A stretch of 64,000 nt of DNA from Sulfuritalea sp. (GTDB lineage Bacteria > Pseudomonadota > Gammaproteobacteria > Burkholderiales > Rhodocyclaceae), in assembly GCF_017302275.1 (NCBI RefSeq), contig NZ_JAFLDR010000014.1, forward strand, positions 40,932 to 104,931, written 5' to 3'. Under the pieces are notes generated by a model. That model saw nothing but the letters and a program-made list of their open reading frames with translations, made no database searches and was not told where the DNA came from. Below are positions 941 through 61,747 of this stretch, one piece after another; the stretch's first letter is position 1, and every line of letters begins with the position of its first letter. The position numbers and the translations under genes were made by a program.

Positions 941-967
941 TCGCCGTGCCGGCAGCGCCGACTTTTT
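941..967 (+). repeat. dispersed GCGCCGACTTT repeat, copy 1
   Basis: The stretch begins TCGCCGTGCC and ends GCGCCGACTTTTT. It lies between a methyltransferase gene and a decayed gene. Seven further copies with the same layout are marked in this window. Confidence 0.6.
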
Positions 968-1021
968 GAAGGCAGACCGATAACGGCCGCCATCGTGGCG
1001 TTACCTGGCCATACCTCCGGA

Positions 1022-1347
1022 TCACTCGTGCCACCCAACGCGACGATCCGTGGAGCCGCGATCATGGTCATCGCCATGTCGCGAGCGGCTTTCGTAGTCG
1101 TGGTGCCGGTACGCACGCACGACCCGGCGCGGCGGCTCCAGGTACCAGCGATCGCCGCGCTGCTCCCAGTGCCCGGCACGGCGACCGGAACGTACCCGAC
1201 TCCTGGCGCCGGCGGCGGACCGATGCCGACGCCGATCGAGACATCGCCGATCCGGAAGCGAACGCGACCGCTGTCGGCGAAGAATGACGTCGAAAACAGC
1301 ACAACCAGCACGACGGCAACGGACGAAACATGTTAGGCAGTTTTCAT
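1022..1347 (-). pseudogene. decayed small secreted protein (nonsense and frameshift)
   Basis: A ribosome-binding GGGGAAG precedes ATG at 1347, but the frame reads MKTA and then TAA. Past the stop the same frame continues with a hydrophobic signal-peptide-like stretch (VAVVLVVLFSTSFF) and a mature part, RVRFRIGDVSIGVGIG, then PPPAPGVGYVPV. Near 1170 the coding pattern moves to another frame: GHWEQRGDRWYLEPPRR, then a His/Arg-rich tail ending RRVGWHE and TGA at 1022. The HWEQRGDRWYLEP part resembles WxxGxW-repeat or RcnB-like small periplasmic proteins of betaproteobacteria. The 326-base span is not a multiple of three, as expected for one frameshift. I infer a recently inactivated gene; a sequencing error cannot be excluded. 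Confidence 0.6.
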
Positions 1348-1636
1348 GTGCTTCCCCTTGTCAATCGCGCGCCCTGAATGAGCGACATGCTGATGAGCAA
1401 GTTAACGCAGCGCCGTGCCTGGAGCCGCCCACGAAACTGCAAGGCGGGGAGGCAGTTTGTAAGTGAATGTGGGGGGCGCAACAAAGTCAGCACGGTTCCG
1501 GTCAGTATGACTTTCGCGTTCCCTGAACGCGGCCGGGATGGCGGCTTGGGATCGTGTTTCTGCTACGACCGCATAAGCGCCCATGGGCGACGCACGCGTT
1601 GCCTGAAAGCTGCCTTTGAATTGGGACTTGAAATTG
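1348..1636. other. gene-free stretch
   Basis: This 289-base interval lies between the decayed secreted-protein gene and the vapC-like gene. Short open frames exist on both strands but none has a recognisable motif or a good ribosome-binding site. I see no convincing promoter or terminator. Confidence 0.4.
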
Positions 1637-10264: not shown

Positions 10265-11317
10265 TCATAGTTCCGGGTACATGCGGCCGGGATTGAACAC
10301 CCGGTAAGGGTCGAAGCTCTGCTTGAGGCGGCGGTGCACTTCCATCAGCGCGGGCTGGAGCGGCGCGAATACGCCAGCCGCCTTGTCACCGCCGCGAAAC
10401 AGCGTGGCATGCCCGCCCACGCGTGTTGCAAGCTCGCGAATGCGCAACGGATCGACATCGCCGCGCAGCCAGCGTTGCGCCCCGCCCCATTCGATCAGCG
10501 TAGTGCCGGGCAGGTCGAGCGGAGGCGCCACCGACGGCACCGAGAGCCGCCACAGCGGGACATCGCCGGCGAAATACTCCGCGTCCTGCTCGCGCAGCCC
10601 CTGCCAGAAGGCAACCGCTTCAACGCCATCAATCGCCTCGCCGCCGAGCCTGGCGCAAGCCGCCGACACCGCCGCCTGCGCCCCGCTGAGCCGCAGCGTC
10701 AGCACGCCATCCTGCCAGCAGTTCGCCACCAGCGGCAGAGGCTGTCCGGCCCAGCGGTTGAGCGCCTCCAGTGCCTTGTCCTGCGGCATCTCGAAACGCA
10801 GGCTGGCGTCACCCGGCGGCACCGGCAGCACCTTGAGTGAAACCTCCAGGACCAGGCCGAGCGTACCCAGGCTGCCCGCGATCAGGCGCGAGACATCGAA
10901 ACCGGCGACATTCTTCATCACCTCGCCGCCAAAGCGGTGCACCCGCCCTTCGCCATCCATCAGCTTGACGCCGAGGACGAAGTCACGCATGCCGCCGACC
11001 GCTGCCCGGCGCGGCCCGGCCAGTCCGGCGGCCACCGCGCCGCCGACAGTCGCGGCACCGAAGTGTGGCGGCTCGCAGGCAAGGCATTGTTGCCGTGTCG
11101 CCAGCGCCGACTCCAGTTCCGCCAGCGGCGTACCGCAACGCGCGGTGATCACCAGCTCGGTCGGCTCGTAGCTGACGATGCCGGCATGGCCCGCGGTATC
11201 GAGCAAGTCGCCGCTGACCAGGCCACCGTAGAAATCCTTGCTGCCGCCACCGCGCAGGCGCAATGGTTTGCGCTCCAGGATGCGGGCGCGAAAGGCCTCG
11301 AGCATGACTTCACCCAT
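10265..11317 (-). CDS. glcE: glycolate oxidase FAD-binding subunit
   Basis: This 350-residue protein is exactly the length of E. coli GlcE. It has the shortened FAD_binding_4 fold: LRLRGGGSKDFYGG, TVGGAVAAGLAGPRRAAVGG and GGEVMKNVAGFDVSRL. The C terminus FDPYRVFNPGRMYPEL matches the family. It works with GlcD and GlcF to oxidise glycolate to glyoxylate. The ATG at 11317 shares one base with the glcD stop (TGATG). A longer frame from 11494 is only the shadow of glcD. Confidence 0.95.
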   Translation of the reverse strand: MGEVMLEAFRARILERKPLRLRGGGSKDFYGGLVSGDLLDTAGHAGIVSYEPTELVITARCGTPLAELESALATRQQCLACEPPHFGAATVGGAVAAGLAGPRRAAVGGMRDFVLGVKLMDGEGRVHRFGGEVMKNVAGFDVSRLIAGSLGTLGLVLEVSLKVLPVPPGDASLRFEMPQDKALEALNRWAGQPLPLVANCWQDGVLTLRLSGAQAAVSAACARLGGEAIDGVEAVAFWQGLREQDAEYFAGDVPLWRLSVPSVAPPLDLPGTTLIEWGGAQRWLRGDVDPLRIRELATRVGGHATLFRGGDKAAGVFAPLQPALMEVHRRLKQSFDPYRVFNPGRMYPEL

Positions 11318-16947: not shown

Positions 16948-17979
16948 CTACAGCGCGAACGTGCCCGTTTGGTGGGAGAGCGCCTCGATGGCGCTTTCGT
17001 CCATGGTCAGCAGGCGCCGGCCAAGCGCTGCGAAATGGGCCTGTCCCGCGTCGGCCGCCGCCGCAAGGATCGCCGTGTCGCCGGCGCCGACTCTTGAGCT
17101 GTAGGCCGCATGGAGCCGCGGAAACATATCGCGCCGCAATCCATCGAAGGTCGAAAACCAGAAGTGCAGCGAATCGACCGAGCCGCGCCGCAGCAGCGCC
17201 GGCAGCGTGACGAGGCAATCGGCCAGGTTGTCCTTCACGCCACGCGCGAAGATCTCGGCGCGCTTGCCGCGCAGCCGCGCCAGCATTTCCGGCCACGATT
17301 CGCCCAGCATGCGGCCGGCCGCGAGTTCGCCCTCCTCGTGCAGCACCAGGGTCTCGATTTCACCCTCGGTCATGCGCTCGATCGCTGCCAGCGGATCGAC
17401 ATCAAAACCATACGCCAGCAACGCCGACTTCAGGGCACCGTCCTGCTGCTTGACGTTCCAGCCCTCGGCCTTTTCCCACAGCCACTGGCGCAGCGCCTCG
17501 CGCCTGACGATCAGCATTTCGCCCTGCGAGGCGGCCGGTATCGCCGCCACGTCGCGCGCATATTCGCAACCGCAGACCAGGAGGCGCGCCGCTCCGCGCT
17601 GCTCGTCGCGATCGAGCCGGCCGAGGAAGAAGTGCGGCTTGTGGAAGCGGCCGATGCCGGCGCCATAGACCAGCCCGCTGCCCGCCAAGGCCGCATTGAC
17701 CCGCGGCGCATCGAAGGGATCGTAGTCGCTGCCGCCCAGCGGCAAGCGGACGAAATCGTCGTCGGCCAGGCTTTCCCAGCGCGCCTCGCGTTCGGCGATC
17801 CAGCGTCCCACCTCGTCACGCGCCGGCGCGACGCCATGGGGCAGGTCATGCTCCCAGCGATAGAACTCGCGCATGCCGAGCAGGTAGGTGCACAGGCTGA
17901 CATCGCGCGCATGGCGGGCGTCGGCGATGTCGCAATTGGTCTGCACCGCGCTGACGAGTTCGGCCATTCCGGTGATCAT
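16948..17979 (-). CDS. conserved protein of unknown function, 343 residues
   Basis: I do not recognise a characterised family. The protein begins MITGMAELVSAVQTNCDIADARHARD and contains LCTYLLGMREFYRWEHDLP, an EVGRWIAEREARWESL helix, KPHFFLGRLDR and LVCGCEYARDVAAIPA. It is soluble, mixed alpha/beta, with many Trp and Arg residues, and has no signal peptide or membrane helix. The ATG at 17979 overlaps the stop of the 149-residue gene upstream (ATGA), so the two proteins are likely made together and may form one complex. The longer frame upstream of 17979 is a shadow of that partner. Confidence 0.8.
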   Translation of the reverse strand: MITGMAELVSAVQTNCDIADARHARDVSLCTYLLGMREFYRWEHDLPHGVAPARDEVGRWIAEREARWESLADDDFVRLPLGGSDYDPFDAPRVNAALAGSGLVYGAGIGRFHKPHFFLGRLDRDEQRGAARLLVCGCEYARDVAAIPAASQGEMLIVRREALRQWLWEKAEGWNVKQQDGALKSALLAYGFDVDPLAAIERMTEGEIETLVLHEEGELAAGRMLGESWPEMLARLRGKRAEIFARGVKDNLADCLVTLPALLRRGSVDSLHFWFSTFDGLRRDMFPRLHAAYSSRVGAGDTAILAAAADAGQAHFAALGRRLLTMDESAIEALSHQTGTFAL

Positions 17980-19242: not shown

Positions 19243-20706
19243 TCAAAGCGGCTCGACGTGCAATTGCGCTGGCGGCACGCCGGCGGCCAGCAGCGCATCG
19301 GCAATCGGCCCGGCGCTTTGCGCGGCGCCGGCCAGATAGACGTCGCTGCCGGCCAACGCGGTATTGGCGCCCAGGACAGCCGGCAATTCATCGGCAACCA
19401 GCGCCCGGTAGCTGAATGCGTCCAATGCTTCGGCCCAGGCGCGGCACAGGTTGGGCAGGTACTGGCCGCCGGCCTGCGCGCTCGCCCAGTAGAGAGCGAT
19501 CGACTCGGCGGCATCCACCGCGATGGCATGCTCGATCAGGCTGTTGATCGGCGCGAAGCCGTCGTCGAGGGCGATGAACACCAGCGGCCGCGGCGAACTG
19601 TTCTCCAGGACGAAAGTGCCCCACGGTCCCCACACCGAAACGTCGTCGGCGAGGCGGATGCGGCCGTCGAACAGGCAGGCCGAAAAGTCGGCGCTGGCGG
19701 CACGGCGGTCATTGCGGGAAACATGGAAAATCAGGTTGCGGTCGTCGCAGGGGCAACTCGCGACGGAGAATTCGCCATGCACATCGCTGCCGTCGCGGAT
19801 GCCGGCGCGAATGCCCAGGGTCACCCGCTGCCCGGCGAGGAAGCGCAGGCGGTTGCTGCGCGGCGTCTGCAGGTGCAGCCGCATCACGTCGGCGGTCAGC
19901 GCATCGATGCGGCGCACCTTGGCGACCACGCGCTGCTCGGGGATGTCTTCCGGCGCACCGGCTTCCAGAACTTCCAGCGTCAGGTCGGAGCTCAGTGCCG
20001 TGCAGCTGCACATCAGGACATGGTTCTGCGCCTTTTCGGCTTCGGAAAAGCGGTAGTCGAAAGACGCCACGTCGCGCGTCTCGCCGGCCACCACGCGCGC
20101 CTTGCACAGTCCGCAATTGCCGTTGCCGCAGCCGTAGTTGGGCGCGAGGCCCGCGCGCAGCGCCGCCTTCAGGAGCGTCTCCGATCCCTCGACGAAAAAC
20201 TCGCGACCCGATGGCTTGACCGTGACGTGCGCCGACATGACGCGCAGCATAGCATCGAGCGCACCGACGTCCTGCGCCGGCGGCGGTACCGACAGGGCCT
20301 GTGCCAGGCCGTCGTCGAGCAATGACGCGAGTTCCGCGGGGCTCGGCGCTTGCGGCTGTTCGAGGCGCGCTCGCAGCGCCGCGAACAGCGCGTGGTAGCG
20401 CGTCAGGGTGCGTTGCAACTCCGCAAGTTCCTGCCCCTGCACGAAGATGCGTTGCGCCAGTGTTTCCTGGGTCGGCAGCACGCGCTCGCGCAAGCGGCGG
20501 GCAAAGGCATCCTCGCGGATGGCGCGGGTCTTTTCGAAACTGCCCGAGTCGTCGAGGTCGAACTGCGGCCAGGCGCGCTGCAGGTCCTCGGCATCGACCA
20601 TGCCGTCGAAGGACGCCAGTTCGCCGTCGCGGATGCGCTTTTGCAGCGCAATGCGTGAAATGCCAAGCAGATGCGCGGCGCGCGACAGGGTAAGCCATTG
20701 GGACAT
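19243..20706 (-). CDS. fusion: HTH, helical linker, 2Fe-2S ferredoxin and FNR-type reductase
   Basis: This 487-residue protein joins four parts. Residues 1-45 (WLTLSRAAHLLGISRIALQKRI) look like a MerR/excisionase-type helix-turn-helix. Residues 46-155 are helical and charged. Residues 158-245 are a plant-type ferredoxin with C193, C198, C201 (GCGNGNCGLCK) and C233 or C235 as cluster ligands. Residues 250-487 are a ferredoxin-NADP reductase-like module with GQRVTLGIR, GEFSVAS and a C-terminal DVYLAGAAQS segment for flavin and nucleotide. The peptide RRAASADFSA (334-343) is coded by a dispersed DNA repeat. ATG 20706 is chosen because further upstream the frame only translates a tandem repeat. 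Partners and substrate are unknown. Confidence 0.85.
   Translation of the reverse strand: MSQWLTLSRAAHLLGISRIALQKRIRDGELASFDGMVDAEDLQRAWPQFDLDDSGSFEKTRAIREDAFARRLRERVLPTQETLAQRIFVQGQELAELQRTLTRYHALFAALRARLEQPQAPSPAELASLLDDGLAQALSVPPPAQDVGALDAMLRVMSAHVTVKPSGREFFVEGSETLLKAALRAGLAPNYGCGNGNCGLCKARVVAGETRDVASFDYRFSEAEKAQNHVLMCSCTALSSDLTLEVLEAGAPEDIPEQRVVAKVRRIDALTADVMRLHLQTPRSNRLRFLAGQRVTLGIRAGIRDGSDVHGEFSVASCPCDDRNLIFHVSRNDRRAASADFSACLFDGRIRLADDVSVWGPWGTFVLENSSPRPLVFIALDDGFAPINSLIEHAIAVDAAESIALYWASAQAGGQYLPNLCRAWAEALDAFSYRALVADELPAVLGANTALAGSDVYLAGAAQSAGPIADALLAAGVPPAQLHVEPL
19682..19710 (-). repeat. dispersed GCGCCGACTTT repeat, copy 2, inside a gene
   Basis: Read on the minus strand it is GACCGCCGTGCCGCC then AGCGCCGACTTTTCG. 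It lies inside the ferredoxin-reductase fusion gene, in frame, coding RRAASADFS. Confidence 0.65.
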
Positions 20707-21676: not shown

Positions 21677-24600
21677 TCACTGCACTATTTCGCGCCAGCT
21701 GACCCGTTTGCCGGTGGGCGGAGCCACATCGAAAGGCGCCTCGACGGTCAATTGCTGGGCCGCCGATGTCGTCGCGATGACCACCGTCTTGCCGCTCGGC
21801 AGGCGCACGATGTTGAGACCCACCGCCAGCGATTCCGAGCCTCCGGCACCGACCAGGCGACGTCCGACTGCCAGGTCCGCGCTGTTCTTGATGGCCTCGC
21901 CAGTGCCGTTGTTGAAGTAGTTCAGCCAGGCGTAGCCGCCGATATTGCAGGCGTTGGTTTCCGGCACGTTGGAAGCGACGACCAGGGTGCCCAGTTGCAG
22001 CTTCATGTCGATGCTGATGCGCTCGCCCGAATCGGGCAGATCGACAAACCAGCCGTCGGCCGAACTGCAGTTGGCCGTGCAGCCATTGGTACGGAATGCG
22101 GCGGTGCCGGAGCCGTGGGTCGTGATCACCATCTTGCGTAGGTTGGTGCGCAGGTCGGTCAGCGCCGTGGCGCCCAGCGTGTCGCGCAGGGCCCAGACCG
22201 AATTGGTCTGGGTGGTGGCCAGGTCGGTCGGGCCAAGATAGCGTCCGGTACCGACGTAGACATAGGCCTCGCCGCCGACTTCGGCCAGTTCGGGCCGGGT
22301 CGAGATCGGTTGCCCGACGCCGCTCGGATCCACTACCTGCGCGACAAGCGTCGCCTCGCGCCCGGCGGCATTCAGTGCATCGTTGATATCGAAGCGCCAG
22401 ACGTTGCCGTGCAGGTCGCCGCCGTATATCCGCTCCGCGGTGTTGTCGCGCAACGGGTTTACGGACCACGCACTGATGTGGTTGAGGCCGCTGGGGTCGG
22501 CTGCCGATCCTTCGCCGGTGCTGATCTTGAAGAGGATCTTGCCGGTCATCGCCTCGAGCACGTAGAGATAGCCGATGCCATCGCCGGGAGCCGCGGGCGA
22601 ATTGACGTTGTTGTAGCCCGAGGTGACGATCACCACCCAGCGGCCGTCAGGCGCACGCAGCTTGGTGATGATGGGGTTGTTGAACGTATATCCGATGTGG
22701 CAATCCGAGAATTGGTCGGTGGCCGGCGCCTTGGTAGTCGCATCCACCGTGACGCAGTTGCCGGCGTCGTGTTTGAACTCCCAGAGCGCGACCGGCGCCG
22801 CAGGATTGGTCACGTCGAGCGCGAAATAACCCTTGCCGCCCTTGTTCATGCCGCTGACGAGCACGGTCCGCCAGCTCGACGTATCCGGGTTGTACACATC
22901 CCCGACCACCGGCGTTCCATCCACCGAATACACGTGTTGGGAGGCATAGGCCTCGCTCGCGAGTTTGTAGAGATTTGGCAGCACCATGCTAGGCATGAAA
23001 GCCCAGGCTTCCTTGCCGCCATCCGGATCGATGATCGTGTCGCCGGCCTTGATGGCGTGCAGCATGCCGTCATTGGCCGAGGCATAGACGATGGGCGAAC
23101 GCGTCAGGTTGACGCTCTTGAACAGCGCGTAGCCTGGATCGTCGTACTCCGCAAACGGCCCCTTGACGAACACCGGCTGGGCATTGACGATGTCGCCCAG
23201 GACATTCTCCCGCGTCCGGTAAAGTTTGTTGAGGTCGGTATTCGTCACCGGTGGGCCGGAGCTGAATCCCTCCTTGCCTCGCTGGCCGCGCAGGTAATTG
23301 ACCAGGTTGGCACCGGCCGCCGGAGTGCGCTGATCGACGGTGACGCCGACGCCCGTGCCGTAATTGGGGTACTGGCTGAGCAAGGCGACGTTGGCCGCGC
23401 CGAAATGCGCCTGCTCGGCCAGATCCAGGGTCGTCACCGCGACGCCCGTAGGTGCCCCTCCCGCATCGCAACCGTAGCTGTCCCATTTGAAATCCACCAT
23501 GTTGTCGGTGGCGCCGGCGCGGAACAGCTTGATCGTGCGGTTATCGCAGGCGGTCCTGGTCATGTCGTCCAGCTTGGCTTGCGCCGACCAGATGACGGTG
23601 CCGCTCACCGCCCCGGTGTTGAGGTTGATCTCGCGCGCTTCGAGGTCGCCGGTCCAGGCCTGGGTCTTGTATTTCGCGGTGTAGGCGAAGTTGTCGCCGG
23701 CCACCGGTTCCAGGTTGGACGTCGCCGCCGCCGCCGCCGCCGCGACGCGGGCATTGATCCCGGCCAGGGCTTCGGCAAGGCTGGTGACCACCGAATCCGG
23801 ATTGCTGGCGCTGAAGTACTGGCCGCGACCATTGACGGCGGCATGCCACAGGTCGTCGAGGGCCGTTGCGCTGTCGGCCACGGGCACCGGCCAGTTGATG
23901 GTACCGTCCCGCAGGCGGACGAAGTCGGGACAGAGCGTCGCCGTCCCGGCGCCGAACACCCCGACTCCCGGGTTGGTCGTCAGCGCAAACCTGAAGGTGG
24001 TGGTGGAAGGCACGGTAGTGATGCGGAACTGGCCGCGGTAGGCCGCGACGCTGCCGCCCGATAACGTGACGGTCTGATTAGCCTGGAATCCATGCGCGGC
24101 AGAGGTGGTGACGGTCACCACGTTGGCGGCCCAGGTTGCGCCCGTGACTGCCTTGGCCATACACTGGTCGGTGCGATAGGTCGGCGAGGAAATCAAGGAA
24201 CCGTCCAGTCCGAGACCCATGGTGAAGGTGGTCATGTGCTGCCAGTTGGCGCGGTCGTCTTCGTTGCCCGATCCGGTGGATGGCACGTTGTCGTCGCAGA
24301 CACTGGTCCCCAGCACCCCGGTGCAGTTCGACAGCGACGCGTTGCGCAGATCGGTCTTGTAGAAATACTGGGCGACGTCCGCCAGCGAGTTGCTGCTGCC
24401 GGAGAACAGCGCCGCGGTGCCGCCAGTGTGGGCGGTGGCGCCGGGGTTGTCGGCCATCAGGACCTTGAAGTGGGTGGCATCCGGGACCTCGACAACCTGA
24501 AAATTGCCGCGGAAGAAGGAATTGGTGCCGCCCGCGACGGTAACCGAGTGCCCGGCCAGGAAGGGATGGTCGGCGGTCGTGGTAAAGGTTGCGAAGGACG

Positions 24601-27600
24601 GATCCGCAACCGGGTCATCGCCCGGCGGGGTCCAGGTCGCCGACGCGACGTTGGCGCTGAGGCCACCGAGGCCGGAACTGTAGGTTTCGCAAGGCCAGAC
24701 CTGGGAGCCGCTGAGGCAGCCCTCGGGCGGCGTCGGCGGGCCTTCGCCGGTCACCGAAGCCGTCGCCGGAACCGCCGGGGCTGCCGCAAAGCAGGTGCCG
24801 GGAACTGCGTCGGACCAGCTCGCCTCCAGATTGACCGTGGCGCCGCCCAGGGCGGTACCGCCCTGGTTCGGGCCGGAGTATGCCTGCGAAGTGATCTCGC
24901 CCTTGCGTTCCAGCTTGAAGCCGGTGGCGCCGGTGGCCCGGCAGTCCGTCGTCTGCCCCGTGTCATCCGGTACCGCGACGACCACGCAGTTGTCGGCGGC
25001 GACCCAGCCGGTGGAGTCGACCCGCCGGCAATCGGTCGTGGCATTCATCACGCAACTCGCCGTATTGGTCCAGGCCGTCGGATCACGGAGCTGGCACTCC
25101 GTGGTGAAGCCGTTGACGTCATGGATCGGATCGGGCGAACAGGCATAGGCGACGTCGACATACGGCGCGGTGGCAACCGTTTCGCAGTAGTTGGCGGCGG
25201 CGTTGCCGGTATAGACATACGACCCTGGGCTGCCGCTGCGCGTCTGGGCGTTGCAGGGTGCCGAAGTCAGGTCCAGGGGCACCGTCGGTTGCACCCCGAC
25301 GGTGGGCCCGTTGACGCGACACTGGAAGTTGGTGCTTTCGGTGCAGGTCGACGCATTGACCCAGGCGCTGAAGCCGCCCGCCGTGCTGCAATCGGTGGCA
25401 ATACCGCCGCTGCTGGTCCAGGTCGGCCCCGATATCGTGCTGGTACAGGTGGGCGAGCCCTGGGTCACGTCGGCAAACGTTCCGTTCACGCGACAGAACA
25501 CGTCAGAACTCGGCGTGCAAGACGCGATCGGATCCCATGTGCCGTCGAGCACGCTGGTATTGTTGCATTCGACCGCGTTGTTGTCCCCGGTCCAATTGGT
25601 GCCGCTCAGCGTGGTCGTGCAGGAGTGCGCCTTGGTGAATGCAGCATTGACGCGGCACTGGACATTGGGCGTGGCCGTGTCGCAGGTCGCCCGGTTGGTC
25701 CAGCCGACCGGGTTGAAGGCGATGGCCCGACATTCGGTGGCGTTGCCGCCGCTGCTGGTCCAGGTTGGGCCCGTTACCGTGCTGGTGCAGGTCGGCGCGT
25801 AGGCCGTGACATAGGCCCAGGCCGGCGTCGGGTTGATGCGGCAAAATACGTCGGAACTCGGCGTGCATGACGCGATCGGATCCCATGTGCCGTCGAGCAC
25901 GCCGGTGTTGTTGCATTCGACAGCGTTGTTGTTCCCGGTCCAATTGGTGCCGCTCAGCGTGGTCGTGCAGGAGTGCGCCTTGGTGAATGCGGCATTGACG
26001 CGGCACTGTACATTGGGTGTGGCGGTATCGCAGGTTGCCCGCGCAGTCCAGCCGGCCGGATTGAAGGCCGCCGTCTGGCATTCCGTCGCGTTGCCGCCAC
26101 TGCTGGTCCAGGTCGGACCCGATACCGTGCTGGTACAGGTCGGCGCATAGGCGGTGACATAGGCCCAGGCCGGAGTCGGATCGACTCGGCACGACACGTT
26201 TCCACTCGGCGTGCATGACGCGATCGGATCCCATGTGCCGTCGAGCACGCCGGTATTGTTGCATTCGACGGCCGCCGCATCCCCCGTCCAGTTGGTGCCG
26301 CTCAGAGTCGTGCCACAGGAATGCGCCTTGACGAAGCTGCCGTTGACGCGGCACTGGGCGTTGGGTGTCGTCGTATCGCAAGTCGAACGATTTGTCCAGG
26401 TGGGATTGAACCCAACGATCTGGCAGTCAGTTGCCAAGGAGTCGCCAGTCCAGGTTGCTCCGGACACGGTGCTGGTGCAGGTGCCTCCATAGGAACGATA
26501 GGCCCAGGCCGCATTGATTTGGCAGGAGACGTCCGAACTGGGCGTGCAGGTGCTGATATTGGTCCAGGCACCATCGAGTACCCCCGTATTGTTGCATTCG
26601 ACCGCAGCCGCATTGCCGCCCCACGTGATTCCATTGAAGGTACTCGTACAGGAGTGCGCCTTGACGAAACTGGCATTGACCCGGCAGGTCACGTCCGCGC
26701 CGGGCGTACAGGACGCGATCGAATCCCAGTTGCCGTCGAAAGCGGCATTGGTGGCGCATTCGACCGCCGCGGCGTCACCGGACCATGTCGTTCCGTCGAA
26801 GGTGGAGGTGCACGAGTGAGCCTTGATAAAGCTTGCACCGGGGTCAATGCGGCACTCCGTCGCCAAGATCGCAGGGGTGCAAGTTGCCGCGGGACTCCAG
26901 GCCGACCAAACAATAGCGGGGAAAAAACTGATGAGAGTCCGTCGTTGCAGTTGCCCGGTCCTGCTCTCGATCTTGCTCTGGTACTGCAACTGGCCGGTCT
27001 TGCTCTGGATCTTGCTCTGGTATTGCAACTGGCCGCGCTTGCGTTGGAGGTTCGTGGTGTATTGCAGCTGCCCGGTCTTGCTCTGGATCATGCTCTGGTA
27101 CTGCAAAGCACCGACCCTGCTCTGGAGGTTCGTGGTGTATTCCAGTTGCCCCGTCTTGCTCTGGATCATGCTTTGGTATTCCAGCGCCCCGGTCCGGCTT
27201 TCCAGGTCGGTGCTGTACTGCAACTGCCCGGTCTTGCTCTGGATCATGCTCTGGTACTCGAGCGGACCGGTCTTGATCTGCAGGTCGGTGCGGTATTGGA
27301 CCTGGCCCGTGGTTTTCTGCAACTGGCTGGTCTGCTGCTGCCACTGCCCGAGCCGCCCCTGTTCCTGGGCCAGCTTTTTCTCCTGCATCGGGCAGGAATT
27401 GTTGAGCTGGTAAAAGAGCCGGGCCGTGTTCCACATGAAGGTGGTGCTGGCGCCGTCGTAGATGGGGCGTGGCGACATCTGGTACTTCGATCCGGCAGAA
27501 CGATAGGCGTCGAGTTCCTCCAGTAATCCGTCCTGGTTGTCCATCGCCGTGGTGCCGTCGAGCTTGACGCCGCCGTTGCCGTTCCAGTATCCGTCCGTGG

Positions 27601-29254: not shown

Positions 29255-29268
29255 GGCGATTCTCCTGG

Positions 29269-35437: not shown

Positions 35438-36616
35438 ATGACCGCCGATACCCGAGGCCTCGGCCTCGCCCCGGCCAGCGCCGGCGACTACCGCGAACTG
35501 GCGCGACGCAGGCTGCCGCGCCCGCTGTTCGACTACCTCGACGGCGCGGCCTATGACGAAGTGACCGCCGGGCGGAACCGCCAGGCCCTGCTGCGCCTGC
35601 AACTGCGCCAGCGCGTGATGCGCGACGTCTCGCAACTGAAGTTTTCCACCCGCGTGCTGGGCCAGGAAATGGCGCTGCCGCTGGTGCTGGCGCCGCTCGG
35701 TCTGGCCGGCGTCATGGCGCGCCGCGCCGAGGTGCAGGCGGCACGCGCGGCGGAAGCGGCGGGCATTCCCTTCTGCGAATCAACGGTGTCGATATGTTCG
35801 ATCGAAGAAGTGCGCGCGGCGACCGCCGCGCCCTTCTGGTTCCAGCTGTACGTCATGCGCGACCGCGGCTACGCGCAAGACCTGATGGCGCGGGCGCGCG
35901 CCGCCGGCTGCCCGGTGCTGGTGCTGACCGTCGACCTGCCGGTGATGGGCGCGCGCTACCGCGACGTGCGCAACGGCATGGCCGGCGCCGCCACCTTGGG
36001 CGGAAAGCTGACCAAGGCCCGCGACCTGCTGACCCACGCCGGCTGGGTGATCGATGTCGCGATACAGGGCAAGCCGCTGACGTTCGGCAACCTGACCATG
36101 GCGGTGCCCGACGCGCACAGTCTGCCCGCCTTCAAGGCCTGGGTCGACAGCCAGTTCGACCCGGGCGTGACCTGGGCCGACCTCGCCTGGGTGCGCCAAC
36201 ACTGGCCGGGCAAGATCCTGGTCAAGGGCATCCTCGACGTCGAGGACGCGCGGCTGGCCGCCGCGGCCGGCGCCGACGGCATCGTCGTCTCCAACCACGG
36301 CGGGCGTCAGCTCGACGGCGTCGCCGCGTGCGCCGATGCGCTGCCGCGCATCGTCGATGCGGTCGGCGACCGGCTTGACGTGCTGATGGACGGCGGCGTC
36401 AGGAGCGGACTCGACGTGGTGAAGGCGCTCGCACTCGGCGCCAGGGCCTGCCTGCTCGGCCGCGCCTGGGGCTACGCCGTCGCCGCGCGCGGCGAGGCCG
36501 GCGTGGCGCACATGCTGGCGGTGATGAAAAGCGAAATGGCCGTGGCGCTGGCGCTGACCGGCGTCACCGATGTCGCGGCGCTGGATCGCGCGGCGCTGCT
36601 CGACGCATCGCCGTAG
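35438..36616 (+). CDS. FMN-dependent 2-hydroxyacid dehydrogenase, LldD-like
   Basis: This 392-residue enzyme has the FMN-dependent alpha-hydroxyacid dehydrogenase fold. YLDGAAYDEVTAGRN is the N-terminal motif. LVLAPLGLAGVMARR, FQLYVMRDRG, VLTVDLPVMGARYRDVRNGM and GIVVSNHGGRQLDG follow, with the catalytic His near 286 and the FMN loop DGGVRSGLDVVKALALGA. Such enzymes oxidise L-lactate, mandelate or glycolate and feed quinone at the membrane. LldD (L-lactate) is the default; mandelate dehydrogenase cannot be excluded. GGAAAGGA precedes ATG 35438. The stop TAG lies inside a dispersed repeat. Confidence 0.9.
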   Translation: MTADTRGLGLAPASAGDYRELARRRLPRPLFDYLDGAAYDEVTAGRNRQALLRLQLRQRVMRDVSQLKFSTRVLGQEMALPLVLAPLGLAGVMARRAEVQAARAAEAAGIPFCESTVSICSIEEVRAATAAPFWFQLYVMRDRGYAQDLMARARAAGCPVLVLTVDLPVMGARYRDVRNGMAGAATLGGKLTKARDLLTHAGWVIDVAIQGKPLTFGNLTMAVPDAHSLPAFKAWVDSQFDPGVTWADLAWVRQHWPGKILVKGILDVEDARLAAAAGADGIVVSNHGGRQLDGVAACADALPRIVDAVGDRLDVLMDGGVRSGLDVVKALALGARACLLGRAWGYAVAARGEAGVAHMLAVMKSEMAVALALTGVTDVAALDRAALLDASP

Positions 36617-36633
36617 CACCGGCGCCGACTTTT
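36608..36633 (+). repeat. dispersed GCGCCGACTTT repeat, copy 4, over a stop codon
   Basis: TCGCCGTAGCACC then GGCGCCGACTTTT. The TAG at 36614-36616 is the stop of the hydroxyacid dehydrogenase, so the repeat supplies the end of the gene. Confidence 0.7.
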
Positions 36634-44130: not shown

Positions 44131-44158
44131 TCGCCGTGGCGCAGGCGCCGACATTTCC
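44131..44158 (+). repeat. dispersed GCGCCGACTTT repeat, copy 5
   Basis: TCGCCGTGGCGCA then GGCGCCGACATTTCC, in the 117-base gap between the HyfB-like gene and the SulP gene. One base of the core differs. Confidence 0.5.
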
Positions 44159-53036: not shown

Positions 53037-53588
53037 ATGGGACACCGCCTCTCGAAAATCTACACCCGCACCGGCGATGCCGGCACCACCGGCCTCGGCG
53101 ACGGTTCGCGCACCGCCAAGAATTCCGCGCGCGTCGCCGCCATGGGCGATGTCGATGAACTCAATTCGCTGCTGGGCGTGGTCCTCTGCGAGCCATTGCC
53201 CGATGACGTCCGCGAATTGCTCACCGGCATCCAGCACGACCTGTTCGACTTCGGCGGTGAAATGTCTATTCCCGGTGCCACGCTGCTCAAGCCCACCCAG
53301 CCGGCACGGCTGGAAGCCGCCATCGACAAGTACAACGCCGAGCTCGGACCGCTCAAGGAATTCATCCTGCCCGGCGGAACACGATCCGCCGCCCTGACCC
53401 ACCTTGCGCGCACGGTCTGCCGCCGCGCCGAACGCATGACCGTAGCGCTGGCCGCCGAAGAGGCGGTGTCCGACGCCGGACGCCAGTACCTGAACCGCCT
53501 ATCCGACCTGCTGTTCGTCCTCGGTCGCTGGCTGAACAAGTCCGCCGGCGGTGGCGACGTGCTGTGGCAGAAGGGCAAGAACGCCTGA
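53037..53588 (+). CDS. PduO-type cob(I)alamin adenosyltransferase
   Basis: This 183-residue enzyme transfers the adenosyl group of ATP to cob(I)alamin, making coenzyme B12. KIYTRTGDAGTTGLGDGSRTAKNSARVAAMGDVDELNS is the N-terminal ATP-binding signature. FILPGGTRSAALTHLARTVCRRAER, with the conserved arginines, and LNRLSDLLFVLGRWLN complete it. Adenosylcobalamin-dependent enzymes are not in the window. AAGGAAA precedes ATG 53037; the frame upstream is non-coding. A copy of the dispersed repeat begins at the stop codon. Confidence 0.95.
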   Translation: MGHRLSKIYTRTGDAGTTGLGDGSRTAKNSARVAAMGDVDELNSLLGVVLCEPLPDDVRELLTGIQHDLFDFGGEMSIPGATLLKPTQPARLEAAIDKYNAELGPLKEFILPGGTRSAALTHLARTVCRRAERMTVALAAEEAVSDAGRQYLNRLSDLLFVLGRWLNKSAGGGDVLWQKGKNA

Positions 53589-53612
53589 AAGTCGGCGCTG
53601 GCGACACGGCGA
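53586..53612 (-). repeat. dispersed GCGCCGACTTT repeat, copy 6, at a stop codon
   Basis: On the plus strand it begins TGAAAGTCGGCGC and continues TGGCGACACGGCGA. TGA at 53586-53588 is the stop of the adenosyltransferase. Confidence 0.7.
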
Positions 53613-56142: not shown

Positions 56143-57656
56143 CGCCGGCACGCCTCACCGGAAAAATATCGATCGCACATATAGCAGGCAGTTTGCGGCA
56201 ACCAGGCCGGAATCGCATAGTACTTCTGCCGCACGCCGGCCAGCACGCCGTCACGATAGGCGGCGTAGTCGAAACCCTCACCCTTGACCCGCCAGAAGCG
56301 CGCGCCGCGGACCTCGAAGCTGTCGACGCCGACAGAGCGGAAGTATCGGCGATAGTCATCCGGGCCAGGTTCGGACTTCCTCAGGATGAGGAAATTGTGG
56401 CCGTCCAGGGTGCGGAAGTCGGTGAGCAGATCGTCATGGCGCGCATGGCTCGACGCCTCGCCGAACACCGCGACATACTGCCGCAGGTTGTAGCCCAGCG
56501 TCACGGCGTTGGAATAGCCGTCCATCGCCAGCACCCGATCCTTTCTGTCGGTTTCGAGTTCGCGCCCGATCGCCCGGTGCTCGAAGCTCAACACGATGCC
56601 GTCGTAGAGCCGGGTCTTCTGCCAGGCCTCCAGCGGAACGCGCGAGGCGACCAGGATGGCGGCGATGTGCAAGGTGGCGAAACCGGCGAAGAACAGGCCG
56701 AGCTTCTGCAACGTGGAAGGCTGCAGGCGCAGGGTTAGCCAGATCAGGGTGAAGGGTACGAAAGACAGCAGCCAGTGCAGGCCGATCTGCTTCACCGCCG
56801 CGAGGACGGCGAACAGCAGGAAGGGTAGCCAGGCCAGCGTGCCGAGTCCGGGCGGCGGGAGGGTCGTTGCGGAAAAGTCGGCGCTGGCGCTACGGCGATT
56901 CTTCCACGCCAGCCACAGCACAGGCGGCCCCATCACGTAGACCAGCGTCACGGCATATAGCACCGGCGTCTTCAGCGACCAGCCGGCATCGCCATGGCGA
57001 TTGACAAAATTGAACATGAAGTTCGGCCAGCAGTTGGCGCTGTTCCACCAGGCCATCAGCACCAGCGCCGGCAAGGTGCAGCCATAGGCGATGGCAACGC
57101 CGGCCAGCGCGCCGCGCTTGCGCCGGCGCAGCGCGTCCACCAGGTAGGCGAAACCGAGGATTGCGGCAAAATACTTGGAGAGCACCGCGCCTGCCAGCAG
57201 CAATCCGGCGGCGAGGTACCAGCGCCGGCTGTCGTCACGCGCGGCGCGTATCCAGGCCAGCCCCGAAAAAACGCTGAAATAGACCAGCGGCGTGTCGGTG
57301 GTGATGAAGACGTTCCAGACATTGACCGGCGCCAGCAATACCAGGGTCGCGGCCCACAGCCGGCGCTGTTCGCCGACGCCGGAAAGCAGATTCGGCAGCG
57401 CCCAGTACACGGCCAGCGCCAACAGGGCGGGTTGGAGGATCACCGGCAGTCGCAGCCACCATTCCGCCTCGCTCACCGTAGAGAGGGCCGCCAGCCACCA
57501 GCCGATCATCGGCGGATGGTCGTAGAAACCCCAGTCGGGCCGCCAGCCCCACCAGATGAAATAGGCCTCGTCGCCGGTGATCGGAAAGGCCGCCGCCAGC
57601 CAGGAGCGGAAGGCCAGGGTGAGGACCAGCAGCGCGGCGAACAGGCGGCCGGTCAT
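56139..57656 (-). CDS. GT39/ArnT-like membrane glycosyltransferase
   Basis: This 505-residue protein has about 11 helices and the GT-C start FPITGDEAYFIWWGWRPDWGFYDHPPMIGWWLAAL with the catalytic acids (D, E) in the first outer loop. ITTDTPLVYFSVFSGLAW is the second family block. The enzyme moves a sugar from a polyprenyl-phosphate donor to lipid, protein or glycan in the periplasm. The peptide RRSASADFSA near 254-263 is coded by a dispersed repeat. It lies between aroG (8 bases) and the UbiA-like gene (overlap), so all are likely one transcript. Confidence 0.88.
   Translation of the reverse strand: MTGRLFAALLVLTLAFRSWLAAAFPITGDEAYFIWWGWRPDWGFYDHPPMIGWWLAALSTVSEAEWWLRLPVILQPALLALAVYWALPNLLSGVGEQRRLWAATLVLLAPVNVWNVFITTDTPLVYFSVFSGLAWIRAARDDSRRWYLAAGLLLAGAVLSKYFAAILGFAYLVDALRRRKRGALAGVAIAYGCTLPALVLMAWWNSANCWPNFMFNFVNRHGDAGWSLKTPVLYAVTLVYVMGPPVLWLAWKNRRSASADFSATTLPPPGLGTLAWLPFLLFAVLAAVKQIGLHWLLSFVPFTLIWLTLRLQPSTLQKLGLFFAGFATLHIAAILVASRVPLEAWQKTRLYDGIVLSFEHRAIGRELETDRKDRVLAMDGYSNAVTLGYNLRQYVAVFGEASSHARHDDLLTDFRTLDGHNFLILRKSEPGPDDYRRYFRSVGVDSFEVRGARFWRVKGEGFDYAAYRDGVLAGVRQKYYAIPAWLPQTACYMCDRYFSGEACRR
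56872..56900 (-). repeat. dispersed GCGCCGACTTT repeat, copy 7, inside a gene
   Basis: On the minus strand AATCGCCGTAGCGCC then AGCGCCGACTTTTC. It lies in frame in the glycosyltransferase gene, coding RRSASADFS. Confidence 0.7.
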
Positions 57657-58880: not shown

Positions 58881-59468
58881 ATGTTCCAGGTTCGAATTCA
58901 CGGCCGGGGCGGTCAGGGTGTCGTCACAGCGGCCGAGATGCTGTCCATTGCGGCCTTCGATGAAGGACGCCACGCCCAGGCCTTCCCCAGTTTCGGTTCC
59001 GAGCGCACCGGCGCGCCGGTGGTGGCCTTCTGCCGCATCGCCGACAAGGAGATCCGCCTGCGCGAGCCGATCATGGCGCCCGATGCCATCATCATCCAGG
59101 ACCCGACCCTGCTGCACCAGGTCGACGTCTTCGCCGGCCTCAAGAAGGACGGCTACATCCTGATCAACACCACCAAGACTTTCGAACAACTCGGCCTCGG
59201 CGACTTCGTCCGCGACTGGCACCCGGAGCGCCTGTGCACCGTGTCGGCCACCGAACTCAGCCTCAAGCACGTCGGCCGCCCGGTGCCCAACGTGCCGCTG
59301 CTCGGCGGCTTCGCCGCGGTATCCGGGATCATCAAGCTCGAATCGGTGGTGATGGCAATCCGCGACAAGTTCTCCGGCAAGGTCGCCGACGGCAACATCG
59401 CCGCCGCCACCGAGGCCTACGACATCGTGGTTGCGGAAATGAGGGAGGCGCTGACCCACCATGCTTAA
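58881..59468 (+). CDS. 2-oxoacid:acceptor oxidoreductase gamma subunit
   Basis: This 195-residue protein has the gamma-domain start MFQVRIHGRGGQGVVTAAEMLSIAAF and FPSFGSERTGAPVVAFCRI. It is one of four subunits that turn a 2-oxo acid and CoA into acyl-CoA, CO2 and reduced carrier. The order gamma-alpha-beta-FAD subunit resembles phenylglyoxylate oxidoreductase (PadEFGHI) of Azoarcus more than one-chain pyruvate:ferredoxin oxidoreductase. AAGGAGGAG precedes the ATG. It overlaps the alpha gene by eight bases. Confidence 0.92.
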   Translation: MFQVRIHGRGGQGVVTAAEMLSIAAFDEGRHAQAFPSFGSERTGAPVVAFCRIADKEIRLREPIMAPDAIIIQDPTLLHQVDVFAGLKKDGYILINTTKTFEQLGLGDFVRDWHPERLCTVSATELSLKHVGRPVPNVPLLGGFAAVSGIIKLESVVMAIRDKFSGKVADGNIAAATEAYDIVVAEMREALTHHA

Positions 59469-60714
59469 GCAATGCGAAGGTTCCCATGCGGTGGCCGAGG
59501 CCGTCGCCCTGTGCCGGCCGGAAGTCATCTGCGCCTACCCGATCTCGCCGCAGACCCACATCGTCGAGGGCATCGGCGAGATGGTGAAATCCGGCGAGCT
59601 CAAGGACTGCGAGTTCATCAACGTCGAATCCGAATTCGCCGCCATGTCGGTGGCCATCGGCTCCTCGGCCGCTGGCGCCCGCACCTACACGGCGACCGCC
59701 TCGCAAGGCCTGCTCTACATGGTTGAGGCGGTCTATAACGCCTCGGGCCTGGGCCTGCCGATCGTCATGACCGTGGCCAATCGCGCCATCGGCGCGCCGA
59801 TCAACATCTGGAACGACCATTCCGACTCGCTCTCGCAGCGCGACTGCGGCTGGGTCCAGCTCTTTGCCGAGACCAACCAGGAGGCGCTCGACCTGCACAT
59901 CCAGGCCTTCAAGCTGGCCGAGGAAATCTCGCTGCCGGTGATGGTCTGCATGGACGGCTTCATCCTCACCCATGCCTACGAGCGGGTCGACATGCCGACC
60001 CAGGAACAGGTCGATGCCTTCCTGCCGCCCTACGAGCCTCGACAGGTTCTCGACGTGAACGAACCGGTGTCGATCGGCGCCATGGTCGGCCCGGAAGCCT
60101 TCATGGAAGTGCGTTACCTCGCCCACGCCAAGCAGATGCAGGCGCTGGAACGGATCCCGCAGCTCGCCGCCGAATTCAAGTCGGTGTTCGGCCGTGAGAG
60201 CGGCGGCCTGATCCGCAGCTACCGCACCGAGGACGCCGAAACCATCGTCATCGCCATGGGCTCGGTGCTGGGCACCATCAAGGACACGGTGGACGAAATG
60301 CGCGAGGCCGGGCACAAGATCGGTGTACTCGGCATCACCAGCTTCCGCCCCTTCCCGCTGGTCGAGGTCGCCGCCGCGCTGAAGCACTGCAAGCGCTTCG
60401 TGGTGCTGGAAAAGAGCCTCGCCGTCGGCATCGGCGGCATCGTCGCCACCAACGTGCGCATGGCCGTCACCGGCATGGGCCTCAAGGGCTACACCGTGGT
60501 CGCCGGCCTCGGCGGCCGCGCCATCACCATGAAGTCGCTGACCGGACTGTTCGAGAAGGCCGGGCGCGACGAGCTCGACCCGGTCAACTTCCTCGACCTC
60601 GACTGGAAGGTGGTGAACAAGCAGCTCGAACGCGAACGCGAAAAGCGGCGCACGGGCCCGGCGGCGGAAGCCATGCTGCGCGATGTCGGCGCCGTTGCCG
60701 CGCGCAACTACTAG
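59461..60714 (+). CDS. 2-oxoacid:acceptor oxidoreductase alpha subunit
   Basis: This 417-residue subunit contains the pyrimidine-binding half of the thiamine diphosphate site: CAYPISPQTHIVEGIGEMVKSGEL, FINVESEFAAMSVAIGSSAAGARTYTATASQGL, and the later ETIVIAMGSVLGTIKDTVDEMREAGHKIGVLGITSFRPFP. Glu in VESEF activates the cofactor. The substrate (pyruvate, 2-oxoglutarate, phenylglyoxylate or another aryl 2-oxo acid) is not evident. Overlap with the gamma gene and a 16-base gap to the beta gene show an operon. Confidence 0.92.
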   Translation: MLKQCEGSHAVAEAVALCRPEVICAYPISPQTHIVEGIGEMVKSGELKDCEFINVESEFAAMSVAIGSSAAGARTYTATASQGLLYMVEAVYNASGLGLPIVMTVANRAIGAPINIWNDHSDSLSQRDCGWVQLFAETNQEALDLHIQAFKLAEEISLPVMVCMDGFILTHAYERVDMPTQEQVDAFLPPYEPRQVLDVNEPVSIGAMVGPEAFMEVRYLAHAKQMQALERIPQLAAEFKSVFGRESGGLIRSYRTEDAETIVIAMGSVLGTIKDTVDEMREAGHKIGVLGITSFRPFPLVEVAAALKHCKRFVVLEKSLAVGIGGIVATNVRMAVTGMGLKGYTVVAGLGGRAITMKSLTGLFEKAGRDELDPVNFLDLDWKVVNKQLEREREKRRTGPAAEAMLRDVGAVAARNY

Positions 60715-60730
60715 AAAAGGGAACCTGACC

Positions 60731-61747
60731 ATGTCCGCTTTACAAACCGTCAAGTTCTACCAGACCGGCACCTTCACCGTCGGCAACCGCCTGCTCGCTC
60801 CCGAAGAGCGCAGCGTGCAGGCCAACATGCAGCGCACCAACTCGCTGAACTCCGGCCACCGCGCCTGCCAGGGCTGCGGCGAGGCGCTGGGCGCACGCTA
60901 CGCCATAGACGCGGCGATGAACGCCACCAACCGCCAACTGATCGCGGCCAATGCCACCGGCTGCCTCGAAGTCTTTTCCACGCCCTACCCCGAGACCTCC
61001 TGGCAGATCCCGTGGATCCATTCCCTGTTCGGCAACACCGCGGCGGTCGCCACCGGCATCGCCGCCGCGATCAAGGTCAAGAAGCAGAAGGGCCAGGGCC
61101 AGGACGTCTGCGTCGTCGCCCAGGGCGGCGACGGCGGCACCACCGACATCGGTTTCGGCTGCCTCTCCGGCATGTTCGAGCGCAATGACGACGTGCTCTA
61201 CATCTGCTACGACAACGGCGGCTACATGAACACGGGCGTGCAGCGCAGTTCCGCCACGCCGTCCGCCGCGCGCACGGCGACCACCATGCCGCTCGGGCCC
61301 GAGCCGGGCAACCCCTTCGGCCAGGGCAAGTTCGTTCCGGCCATCGCCATGGCGCACGAGATTCCCTACGTCGCCACCGCCACCGTGGCCGACCTGCGCG
61401 ACCTGGAAAACAAGGTCACCAAGGCCATGAGCCTGCGCGGCGCGCGCTACATCCACATCCTGGTGCCCTGCCCGCTGGGCTGGGGCACGGCTTCGCACGA
61501 CACCATCCGCATGGCACGCCTGGCCAAGGAGACCGGCATCTTCCCGGTGTTCGAGGCGGAACACGGCGAACTAAAGTCGGCGCTGGCGATACGGCGACCG
61601 CTGCCGGTGGAAGAATACCTGCGGCCGCAGAAGCGCTTTGCCCACTTGTTCGGCAAGAATCCGGCCGTCGAAACCATCGCCCGTATCCAGGCGCAGGCGG
61701 ACAAGAACATCCGCCGCTACGGCCTGCTGTCGAAGGAGGCTGCGTGA
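60731..61747 (+). CDS. 2-oxoacid:acceptor oxidoreductase beta subunit
   Basis: This 338-residue subunit binds the diphosphate of thiamine diphosphate. SGHRACQGCGEALGARYAIDAAM holds the conserved cysteines for an iron-sulfur cluster, GDGGTTDIGFGCLSG is the Mg/TPP motif, and YDNGGYMNTGVQRSSATP follows. The C-terminal part contains KSALAIRRPLPVEEYL, where KSALAIRR (about 282-289) is coded by an antisense copy of the dispersed repeat. GGGAACCTGACC stands before the ATG. The stop overlaps the start region of the next gene. Confidence 0.93.
   Translation: MSALQTVKFYQTGTFTVGNRLLAPEERSVQANMQRTNSLNSGHRACQGCGEALGARYAIDAAMNATNRQLIAANATGCLEVFSTPYPETSWQIPWIHSLFGNTAAVATGIAAAIKVKKQKGQGQDVCVVAQGGDGGTTDIGFGCLSGMFERNDDVLYICYDNGGYMNTGVQRSSATPSAARTATTMPLGPEPGNPFGQGKFVPAIAMAHEIPYVATATVADLRDLENKVTKAMSLRGARYIHILVPCPLGWGTASHDTIRMARLAKETGIFPVFEAEHGELKSALAIRRPLPVEEYLRPQKRFAHLFGKNPAVETIARIQAQADKNIRRYGLLSKEAA
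61572..61597 (-). repeat. dispersed GCGCCGACTTT repeat, copy 8, inside a gene
   Basis: Plus strand TAAAGTCGGCGCTGG then CGATACGGCGA. It lies in the beta subunit gene, read from the opposite strand to copies 2 and 7, and codes KSALAIRR. Confidence 0.65.

What the first reader, a model, noticed from the sequence alone, without database searches (positions are those of the whole stretch)
941..61597. A short dispersed repeat occurs in at least eight places, three of them inside unrelated genes
The layout TCGCCGT, a few variable bases, then GCGCCGACTTT is seen at 941, 19682, 33441, 36608, 44131, 53586, 56872 and 61572. Copies 4 and 6 carry the stop codon of the gene they touch. Copies 2 and 7, in a ferredoxin-reductase fusion and a glycosyltransferase, are read in the same frame and code almost the same peptide (RRAASADFSA and RRSASADFSA). 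Copy 8 lies antisense in an oxidoreductase subunit. Two unrelated proteins sharing a ten-residue peptide through DNA identity points to a mobile or gene-converted short element, not to protein homology.
Basis: partly seen in the sequence, partly recalled or inferred. Interest (0 to 1): 0.7.

Follow-up and report, generated by a model that had tools for sequence, protein, structure and literature searches.

The report
Probable DNA-uptake tags across a genome
A 27-letter DNA tag is scattered hundreds of times through the genomes of one group of environmental bacteria, most likely as a self-label by which cells recognise and take up DNA of their own kind, a trait so far described from only two other bacterial families.

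Summary
The repeat is real and far larger than the window shows: the own genome (4.41 Mb) holds 131 exact copies of TCGCCGT-N7-GCGCCGACTTT (reversed control 0), 784 with up to 3 mismatches (control 25). It is one sharply bounded, non-palindromic ~27-bp motif. It is not a mobile insert or REP: coding copies align without indels to same-genus versions differing by substitutions, and it does not fold notably. Copies lie on both strands, favour gene 3' sides, and inside genes one antisense frame (29 of 55). Motif-rich genomes form one clade of Rhodocyclaceae/Sterolibacteriaceae (Sulfuritalea, Rugosibacter and others), and genera use different dialects. This is the signature of a DNA uptake sequence. 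ComEC is present in 21 of 21 motif-positive genomes tested, but also in 9 of 9 others; the window encodes a minor-pilin cluster with a ComP_DUS pilin. A 2025 paper says only Neisseriaceae and Pasteurellaceae are known to have such motifs (passages). Uptake itself is inferred, not shown.

The parts
941..965 (+). motif copy, exact; in a stretch where the crude gene finder calls no gene
11090..11114 (+). motif copy, 3 mismatches; antisense inside ORF 10265-11317(-)
   Evidence: in-place versions in relatives
17070..17094 (+). motif copy, 1 mismatch; antisense inside ORF 16948-17979(-)
19684..19708 (-). motif copy, 1 mismatch; sense, codes RRAASADFS in a protein with a 2Fe-2S domain (19243-20718)
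33443..33467 (+). motif copy, 2 mismatches; intergenic
36608..36632 (+). motif copy, exact; overlaps the stop codon of 35438-36616(+)
44131..44155 (+). motif copy, 1 mismatch; intergenic
53588..53612 (-). motif copy, exact; overlaps the stop codon of 53037-53588(+)
56874..56898 (-). motif copy, exact; sense, codes RRSASADFS in a PMT_2-domain protein (56139-57656)
61573..61597 (-). motif copy, exact; antisense in the TPP_enzyme_C ORF 60731-61747(+)
32294..32794 (-). minor pilin with Pfam ComP_DUS domain (43.1 bits, cut-off 27.3); candidate receptor, not shown
31639..32382 (-). GspH-domain minor pilin, second candidate receptor, not shown
21677..31645 (-). rest of the minor-pilin cluster: 177-aa ORF (no Pfam match), PilW, 224-aa ORF (no Pfam match), PilY1 (2596-aa ORF)

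Best explanation
The motif is a DNA uptake sequence (DUS/USS-like self-label) of a clade of Rhodocyclaceae/Sterolibacteriaceae. Inferred mechanism: during natural transformation a type IV pilus component binds free double-stranded DNA that carries the motif, the DNA is pulled in and passed through ComEC as a single strand, and it recombines with the homologous chromosomal place. Because motif-bearing fragments are taken up more often, mutations that create or mend a motif spread by biased recombination (molecular drive). This builds hundreds of copies at permissive places (gene ends, loops, tolerated reading frames) and keeps them uniform within a species. When the receptor changes, the genome-wide set drifts to a new dialect. 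Shown here: copy number, sharp motif, in-place differences between relatives, frame and location bias, clade restriction in the sample, dialects, an open ComEC. Inferred: that a receptor reads it and that it promotes uptake.
For: 131 exact copies against 0 control; 784 at up to 3 mismatches against 25. In a 464-kb sample of the own genome (window plus 20 stretches, about 10%), 90 sites at up to 3 mismatches (17/36/19/18 for 0/1/2/3). The 7 spacer positions that the search did not use are conserved too (pos 10 C 0.86, 11 G 0.81, 12 C 0.83, 13 C 0.90), and conservation ends at positions 0 and 26. Summed the profile holds about 34 bits (inflated by selection of sites), against ~13.5 bits needed to find ~760 sites: an excess expected of self-spreading labels. 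Motif words lead the over-represented 10-mers in the G000 and G148 samples, and the dialect word ACTGACTTTT in G010 (19 against 0.04). In genes 55 of 90, 29 of 55 in one antisense frame (p 1e-9); 35 of 90 outside or at gene edges against 15% non-coding (p 2e-8); convergent 11 against divergent 2 on near-equal base counts (p 0.013), 7 against 2 when long uncalled stretches are left out (p 0.009). Whole-genome strands balanced (63/68). Published DUS/USS show the same kinds of bias: reverse complement commoner in genes (PMC2346458), permissive places with high self-conservation (PMC2397512), dialects that follow phylogeny (PMC3630211). Dialect profiles, re-estimated from the G000 seed on 200 kb each: G019 TGCCGT.ccGcCAGCGCCGA.TTT, G148 CGCCGT.TCaCCAGCGCCGACTTTT, G010 CGCCGT..CG..g.gACTGACTTTt, G023 CGCCGT.tcGccg.cgCTGACTTT; most of 100 listed G045 rows have GCGTCGACTTT. 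One clade in a ComEC tree: 21 positives plus 2 low-count genomes, SH-aLRT 93, quick method. ComEC over cut-off without inner stops in 30 of 30.
Against: No uptake or binding was tested. ComEC and ComP_DUS pilins also occur in the motif-poor relatives (9 of 9 for both), so their presence does not discriminate; ComP_DUS was not found in 2 of 21 motif-positive genomes (G045, G138). The own ComP_DUS-like pilin is not basic (pI 6.3) and its PDB sequence matches are mostly major pilins, no ComP among the 17. In G019 and G023 the top 10-mers of the sample are other repeats, not the motif. Evenness of spacing is nominally significant in only 2 of 4 stretches (combined p 0.008). In the sample + copies outnumber - (55 to 35; C2 16 to 5), though not in the whole genome. 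The motif is longer than known uptake cores (ca. 9-12 nt, PMC12616744). Tblastn gap test: 12 of 38 alignments to motif-less subjects have a gap in the motif peptide against a control rate of 0.21: no clear insertion signature, but a weak test. Copy 19684 has a 24-nt indel in G069.
Confidence: 0.75

Rival explanations
1. Binding site of an intracellular protein (nucleoid, chromosome-organising, recombination or repair protein), kept in hundreds of copies by selection on chromosome function.
For: Sharp protein-site-like motif, found on many contigs, nominally even spacing in 2 of 4 stretches.
Against: Far more information than needed to be found; motif differs genome-wide between genera; copies avoid divergent (promoter) regions and sit in tolerated reading frames; both strands mixed within contigs, although polarity along replichores was not formally tested; copies shift between close relatives at 53588 and 56874.
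Confidence: 0.17
2. Short mobile element or REP/BIME spread by a RAYT or other transposase.
For: Dispersed copies with nothing shared outside the motif; stray copies in some motif-poor genomes.
Against: No significant fold; coding copies at 11090, 17070, 61573 align without indels at the motif to same-genus orthologues with 1-4 mismatches; dialects.
Confidence: 0.04
3. Transcription terminator or RNA element at gene ends.
For: Enriched at convergent regions and often just beyond a gene's 3' end, antisense to it.
Against: No significant hairpin in the three strings folded (z 0.16, -1.26, -0.21); no inverted pairs closer than 439 bp among 90 sites; 55 of 90 copies lie inside genes; no Rfam match in the window at gathering thresholds.
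Confidence: 0.03
4. Chance or codon-usage by-product in a GC-rich genome.
For: The preferred frame codes an innocuous peptide, KVGAGxTA.
Against: 0 of the reversed control against 131; near control level in most of 150 family genomes and in the sampled other families of the order; 35 of 90 copies are not wholly inside genes.
Confidence: 0.01

Closest known systems
DUS of Neisseriaceae (ATGCCGTCTGAA and its dialects; receptor ComP)
   Same: Genome-wide over-represented non-palindromic word, partly intragenic with orientation bias, in permissive places, dialects following phylogeny; a betaproteobacterium with type IV pilus genes and ComEC (PMC3630211 passages, PMC2397512 passages, PMC2346458 Findings section)
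   Different: About 27 bp and bipartite instead of 10-12 bp; different sequence (both contain GCCGT, which may be chance); about 760 copies in 4.4 Mb against almost 1,500 per Neisseria genome (PMC2346458); no close inverted pairs in the sample; receptor unknown; uptake untested
USS of Pasteurellaceae (AAGTGCGGT core)
   Same: Hundreds to thousands of copies, reverse complement commoner in genes (PMC2346458); an extended motif with AT-rich flanks (recalled) and a T-rich end here
   Different: Unrelated sequence, gammaproteobacteria
REP/BIME elements with RAYT (features recalled)
   Same: Short, dispersed, many intergenic copies
   Different: REPs are palindromic, mostly intergenic, and spread by transposition; this motif is not palindromic, is often in genes and differs in place between relatives
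Chi/KOPS/matS-type chromosome motifs (features recalled)
   Same: Many dispersed copies of a short motif
   Different: Those are short and polar or regional; this is long, on both strands and forms dialects

Membership tests
DNA uptake sequence (DUS/USS) | Strong genome-wide over-representation of one short motif on both strands | tested here: met
   131 exact vs 0 control; 784 vs 25 at <=3 mismatches; 63/68 strands
DNA uptake sequence (DUS/USS) | Motif promotes binding/uptake/transformation of DNA that carries it | not testable with these tools
   needs a wet-lab assay
DNA uptake sequence (DUS/USS) | Host has natural-transformation machinery | tested here: inconclusive
   ComEC over cut-off in 30 of 30 genomes, 21 of them motif-positive; minor-pilin cluster in the window. 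Other competence genes not searched; competence itself not shown
DNA uptake sequence (DUS/USS) | Specific pilin receptor co-varying with the motif | tested here: inconclusive
   ComP_DUS pilin in 28 of 30 genomes incl. all 9 motif-poor ones, missing in 2 motif-positive; own protein not basic; co-variation not tested
DNA uptake sequence (DUS/USS) | Clade-specific dialects | tested here: met
DNA uptake sequence (DUS/USS) | Intragenic copies with orientation/frame bias, enrichment in permissive locations | tested here: met
   29 of 55 in one antisense frame; 35 of 90 outside genes or at edges; convergent over divergent
DNA uptake sequence (DUS/USS) | Depleted from foreign DNA | tested here: inconclusive
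   2 sites in 7 low-GC 5-kb windows vs 87 in 85 others (one-sided p 0.03), but the motif is itself GC-rich; 8 of 12 long stretches without called genes lie in two long motif-free gaps of C12
REP/RAYT element | Palindromic/hairpin core | tested here: not met
REP/RAYT element | Present/absent as an insertion | tested here: not met
   gapless in-place versions at 11090, 17070, 61573 in same-genus relatives
REP/RAYT element | RAYT transposase in the genome | not tested

The most novel reading that the evidence does not exclude
A third bacterial lineage has evolved sequence-specific DNA uptake, with a bipartite ~27-bp self-label and about five genus-level dialects, in environmental Betaproteobacteria. 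The dialects act as a sexual barrier, and stray tagged stretches in motif-poor neighbours record the direction of gene flow. The receptor may be one of the minor pilins encoded in this very window.
Probability: 0.65. Interest if true: 0.85.

Novelty: new variant of a known kind. Interest (0 to 1): 0.75.

Why it matters
Uptake specificity is stated to be known from only two families, both with notable human pathogens (PMC12616744, 2025, passages seen). A third, environmental lineage with clear dialects would let one ask directly why self-labels evolve, whether by selfish drive or for sex and repair, how receptor and motif co-evolve, and how far they bound gene flow. Practically, it predicts that these bacteria could be transformed with tagged DNA, and it gives a marker for tracing DNA transfer in natural communities.

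Tried and rejected
Mobile insert/REP: rejected on alignments and fold (weak). RNA family: no Rfam match at gathering thresholds in the window. Replication polarity: the G069 place list was truncated with mostly one strand first, so it was not used and polarity was not formally tested. First ComEC tree took shadow frames for several rows and was discarded; one search is the corrected quick tree (no bootstrap, midpoint root; its 93 is below the program's 95 mark). Pilin table picked another pilin-like gene in some loci (for example G019, G080, G113, G117, G044), so it was not used for a receptor tree. In one search, 3 of 57 alignments (5 mismatches) fall in neither group, 36 of 55 in-gene sites had no spanning alignment, and for 7 of the 14 motif-less sites the best alignment is under 41% identity. 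In one search, G003 and G009 had motif-spanning alignments only at 11090. Of the 11 convergent copies, 4 lie in two 3.4-kb stretches in which the crude gene finder called nothing; without long uncalled stretches it is 7 to 2. No tRNA/tmRNA in the stretch L249 that holds one of them. Viral-contig matches (45 stretches) were not followed. BLAST of other stray-copy stretches against held DNA was too sparse to judge. Import of tagged DNA into G018 is a lead, not settled: see the full report. Literature: 0 papers for DNA uptake sequence + Rhodocyclaceae (22), uptake signal sequence + overrepresented + Betaproteobacteria (23), uptake sequence + Sulfuritalea (42), Sterolibacteriaceae + natural transformation (62); the held library is open-licence PMC papers only.
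Full report
Observation. The eight places are real. The pattern TCGCCGT-N7-GCGCCGACTTT has 5 exact matches in the window and 10 within three mismatches, against 0.22 expected. The finding's copies at 19682, 33441 and 44131 are inexact, and two weaker copies (11090, 17070) had been missed. The shared peptides RRAASADFSA and RRSASADFSA follow directly from the DNA.

Scale. The window is contig C6:40932-104931 of a 4.41-Mb, 88-contig genome, G000. That genome holds 131 exact copies (63 +, 68 -) and none of the reversed control; with up to three mismatches 784 against 25. I sampled 464 kb of it (the window and 20 fetched stretches). There 90 sites have 0, 1, 2 or 3 mismatches in numbers 17, 36, 19 and 18 (control 4, all at 3 mismatches); at 4 mismatches 21 against 15 control. 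The profile is sharp, aTCGCCGTrYCGCCaGCGCCGACTTTy. The seven spacer positions, not used in the search, are themselves conserved (five of them strongly), and information drops to background outside positions 0 to 26. In the list of the 16 most over-represented 10-mers of the G000 sample, 14 belong to the motif.

What it is not. It does not fold significantly and no Rfam family matched the window at gathering thresholds. At the coding copies that can be aligned it is not an insert. At 11090 the copy and its versions in G001 (3 mismatches), G069 (2), G117 (4), G038 (0) and G008 (2) align without a gap, while G003, G009, G126 and G019 have background sequence (7-8 mismatches; small gaps in G003, G009 and G019). 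At 17070 G117 (3), G001 (1) and G069 (1) have versions in place. At 61573 G001 (4), G117 (2) and G069 (2) have versions in the same codons with no gap in 105 columns. At 56874 G069 has the motif in place (1 mismatch) among flanking indels, while G001 (2) and G117 (4) have versions at shifted places; at 53588 G001 has a shifted version (2) and G117 none (best 6). At 19684 the motif is held at 0-1 mismatch in G001, G117, G038 and G008 while its flanks diverge; in G069 a 24-nt indel interrupts it. A tblastn test over in-gene sites gave 57 spanning alignments for 19 of 55 sites; of 38 to motif-less subjects 12 have a gap in the motif peptide, against a control rate of 0.21. That shows no clear insertion signature, but the test is weak.

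Where it sits. With a crude codon-usage gene finder (coding fraction 0.85), 55 of 90 copies are wholly inside genes, and 35 lie outside or at edges, more than expected (p 2e-8). Inside genes 29 of 55 are in one antisense frame, coding KVGAGxTA (p 1e-9). Outside, convergent regions hold 11 copies and divergent ones 2 on near-equal base counts (p 0.013); leaving out long stretches where no gene was called it is 7 to 2 (p 0.009). Low-GC 5-kb windows are poor in copies (2 in 7 against 87 in 85), with the caveat that the motif is GC-rich. In contig C12, 8 of the sample's 12 long stretches without called genes fall in two motif-free gaps of about 20 kb, which may be foreign DNA. Spacing is more even than random in 2 of 4 stretches (combined p 0.008). 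In the sample + copies outnumber - (55 to 35, mostly from C2, 16 to 5), but not in the whole genome (63/68 exact, 385/399 at three mismatches).

Who has it. Among 150 family genomes the three-mismatch count is high in G000's genus (599-785 in four genomes incl. G000), g8 (812), g19 (359, 470, 747), g38 (793), g45 (242), g46 (348, 524, 593), g64 (429, 435, 504), g10 (127, 129, 184) and one of two g23 genomes (120; the other, 79% complete, has 5), weak in G114 (49 against 9 control), and near control in the rest, some slightly above (for example G106 43 against 23, G088 42 against 27). In 399 genomes of the order at two mismatches only G000, G019, G080 and G046 stand out, all of this family; every other genome has 0-8. 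In a ComEC tree the 21 positives fall in one clade with two low-count genomes, G029 and G084, inside (SH-aLRT 93, quick method, midpoint root). Low exact counts in g10, G019, G080 and g45 are explained by dialects: profiles re-estimated from the G000 seed on 200 kb each give TGCCGT.ccGcCAGCGCCGA.TTT in G019 (61 sites), CGCCGT.TCaCCAGCGCCGACTTTT in G148 (54), CGCCGT..CG..g.gACTGACTTTt in G010 (61), CGCCGT.tcGccg.cgCTGACTTT in G023 (25); in G045 most of 100 listed rows have GCGTCGACTTT. Independently of the seed, ACTGACTTTT is the top 10-mer of the G010 sample (19 against 0.04); in G019 and G023 the top words are other repeats, and in the motif-poor G018 and G053 the lists hold other words.

Interpretation. 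A long, non-palindromic, over-specified motif present in hundreds of copies on both strands, differing in place between relatives, concentrated where it does least harm, held uniform within a species and switched as dialects between genera is the pattern described for DNA uptake sequences: dialects that follow phylogeny (PMC3630211, passages), reverse complement commoner in genes (PMC2346458, abstract and Findings section), highly conserved copies in permissive parts of the core genome (PMC2397512, passages). ComEC is over its cut-off without inner stops in all 30 genomes tested, positive and motif-poor. The window itself encodes a minor-pilin cluster (ComP_DUS-domain pilin, GspH-domain pilin, PilW, PilY1). 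These do not discriminate, since motif-poor relatives have them too and two positives lack a ComP_DUS match; the own pilin is not basic. So the receptor is only a suggestion, and uptake is inferred.

Gene-flow lead. Motif-poor G018 (one contig) has a few good copies. In one 9-kb stretch the part 1602-6225 is closest to motif-rich G000 (82%, 4635 bits) and G117 (80%, 4230 bits), against 1524 bits for the best single match outside that genus; one copy lies inside it and the other begins 12 bases beyond its end. This may be imported tagged DNA. Against: the motif-poor genomes G053 and G142 match 4928-6216 at 84% and about 3561-4759 at 75-76%, so the source is not settled.

Novelty. [quoted passage not shown] My searches for uptake sequences with Rhodocyclaceae, Betaproteobacteria or Sulfuritalea, and for natural transformation with Sterolibacteriaceae, found no paper in the held library. 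I therefore call it a new variant of a known kind, at 0.75 confidence for the uptake-sequence reading.

Noticed in passing
window 56030-56150 and 18475-18615: Two other structured ~100-140-bp dispersed repeats with many diverged copies in same-genus genomes (REP/BIME-like), unrelated to the motif.
   Followed up: partly
window 63436-63535: A hairpin repeat of the CATTCCCGCGAACGCGGGAA type (type recalled), with copies in same-genus genomes.
   Followed up: no
window 14890-14975: A short repeat with internal inverted repeats, other copies at 14964 and 20774 and in same-genus genomes.
   Followed up: no
G000 sample: A second motif subclass GCCGACTCTT (24 against 1.2 expected) that differs at position 24 (T to C); it may be a coding-tolerated variant or a second dialect.
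   Followed up: no
G230:C34 and G160:C29 (L413, L414): Genomes of other families in the order carry a few near-perfect copies with the full spacer; import or binning error not resolved.
   Followed up: partly
L194-L238: 45 stretches of IMG/VR viral contigs carry an exact copy; whether these are phages of the clade or host DNA was not checked.
   Followed up: no
window 21677-29467 (-): A very long PilY1 ORF (up to 2596 aa) with no motif copy inside at up to 3 mismatches.
   Followed up: no
G019 and G023 samples (L339-L348, L329-L338): Words repeated 37-59 times in 200 kb (for example GTTTCAATCC in G023, TTAATCCCTT in G019) look like CRISPR-type arrays (inferred from the words only).
   Followed up: no
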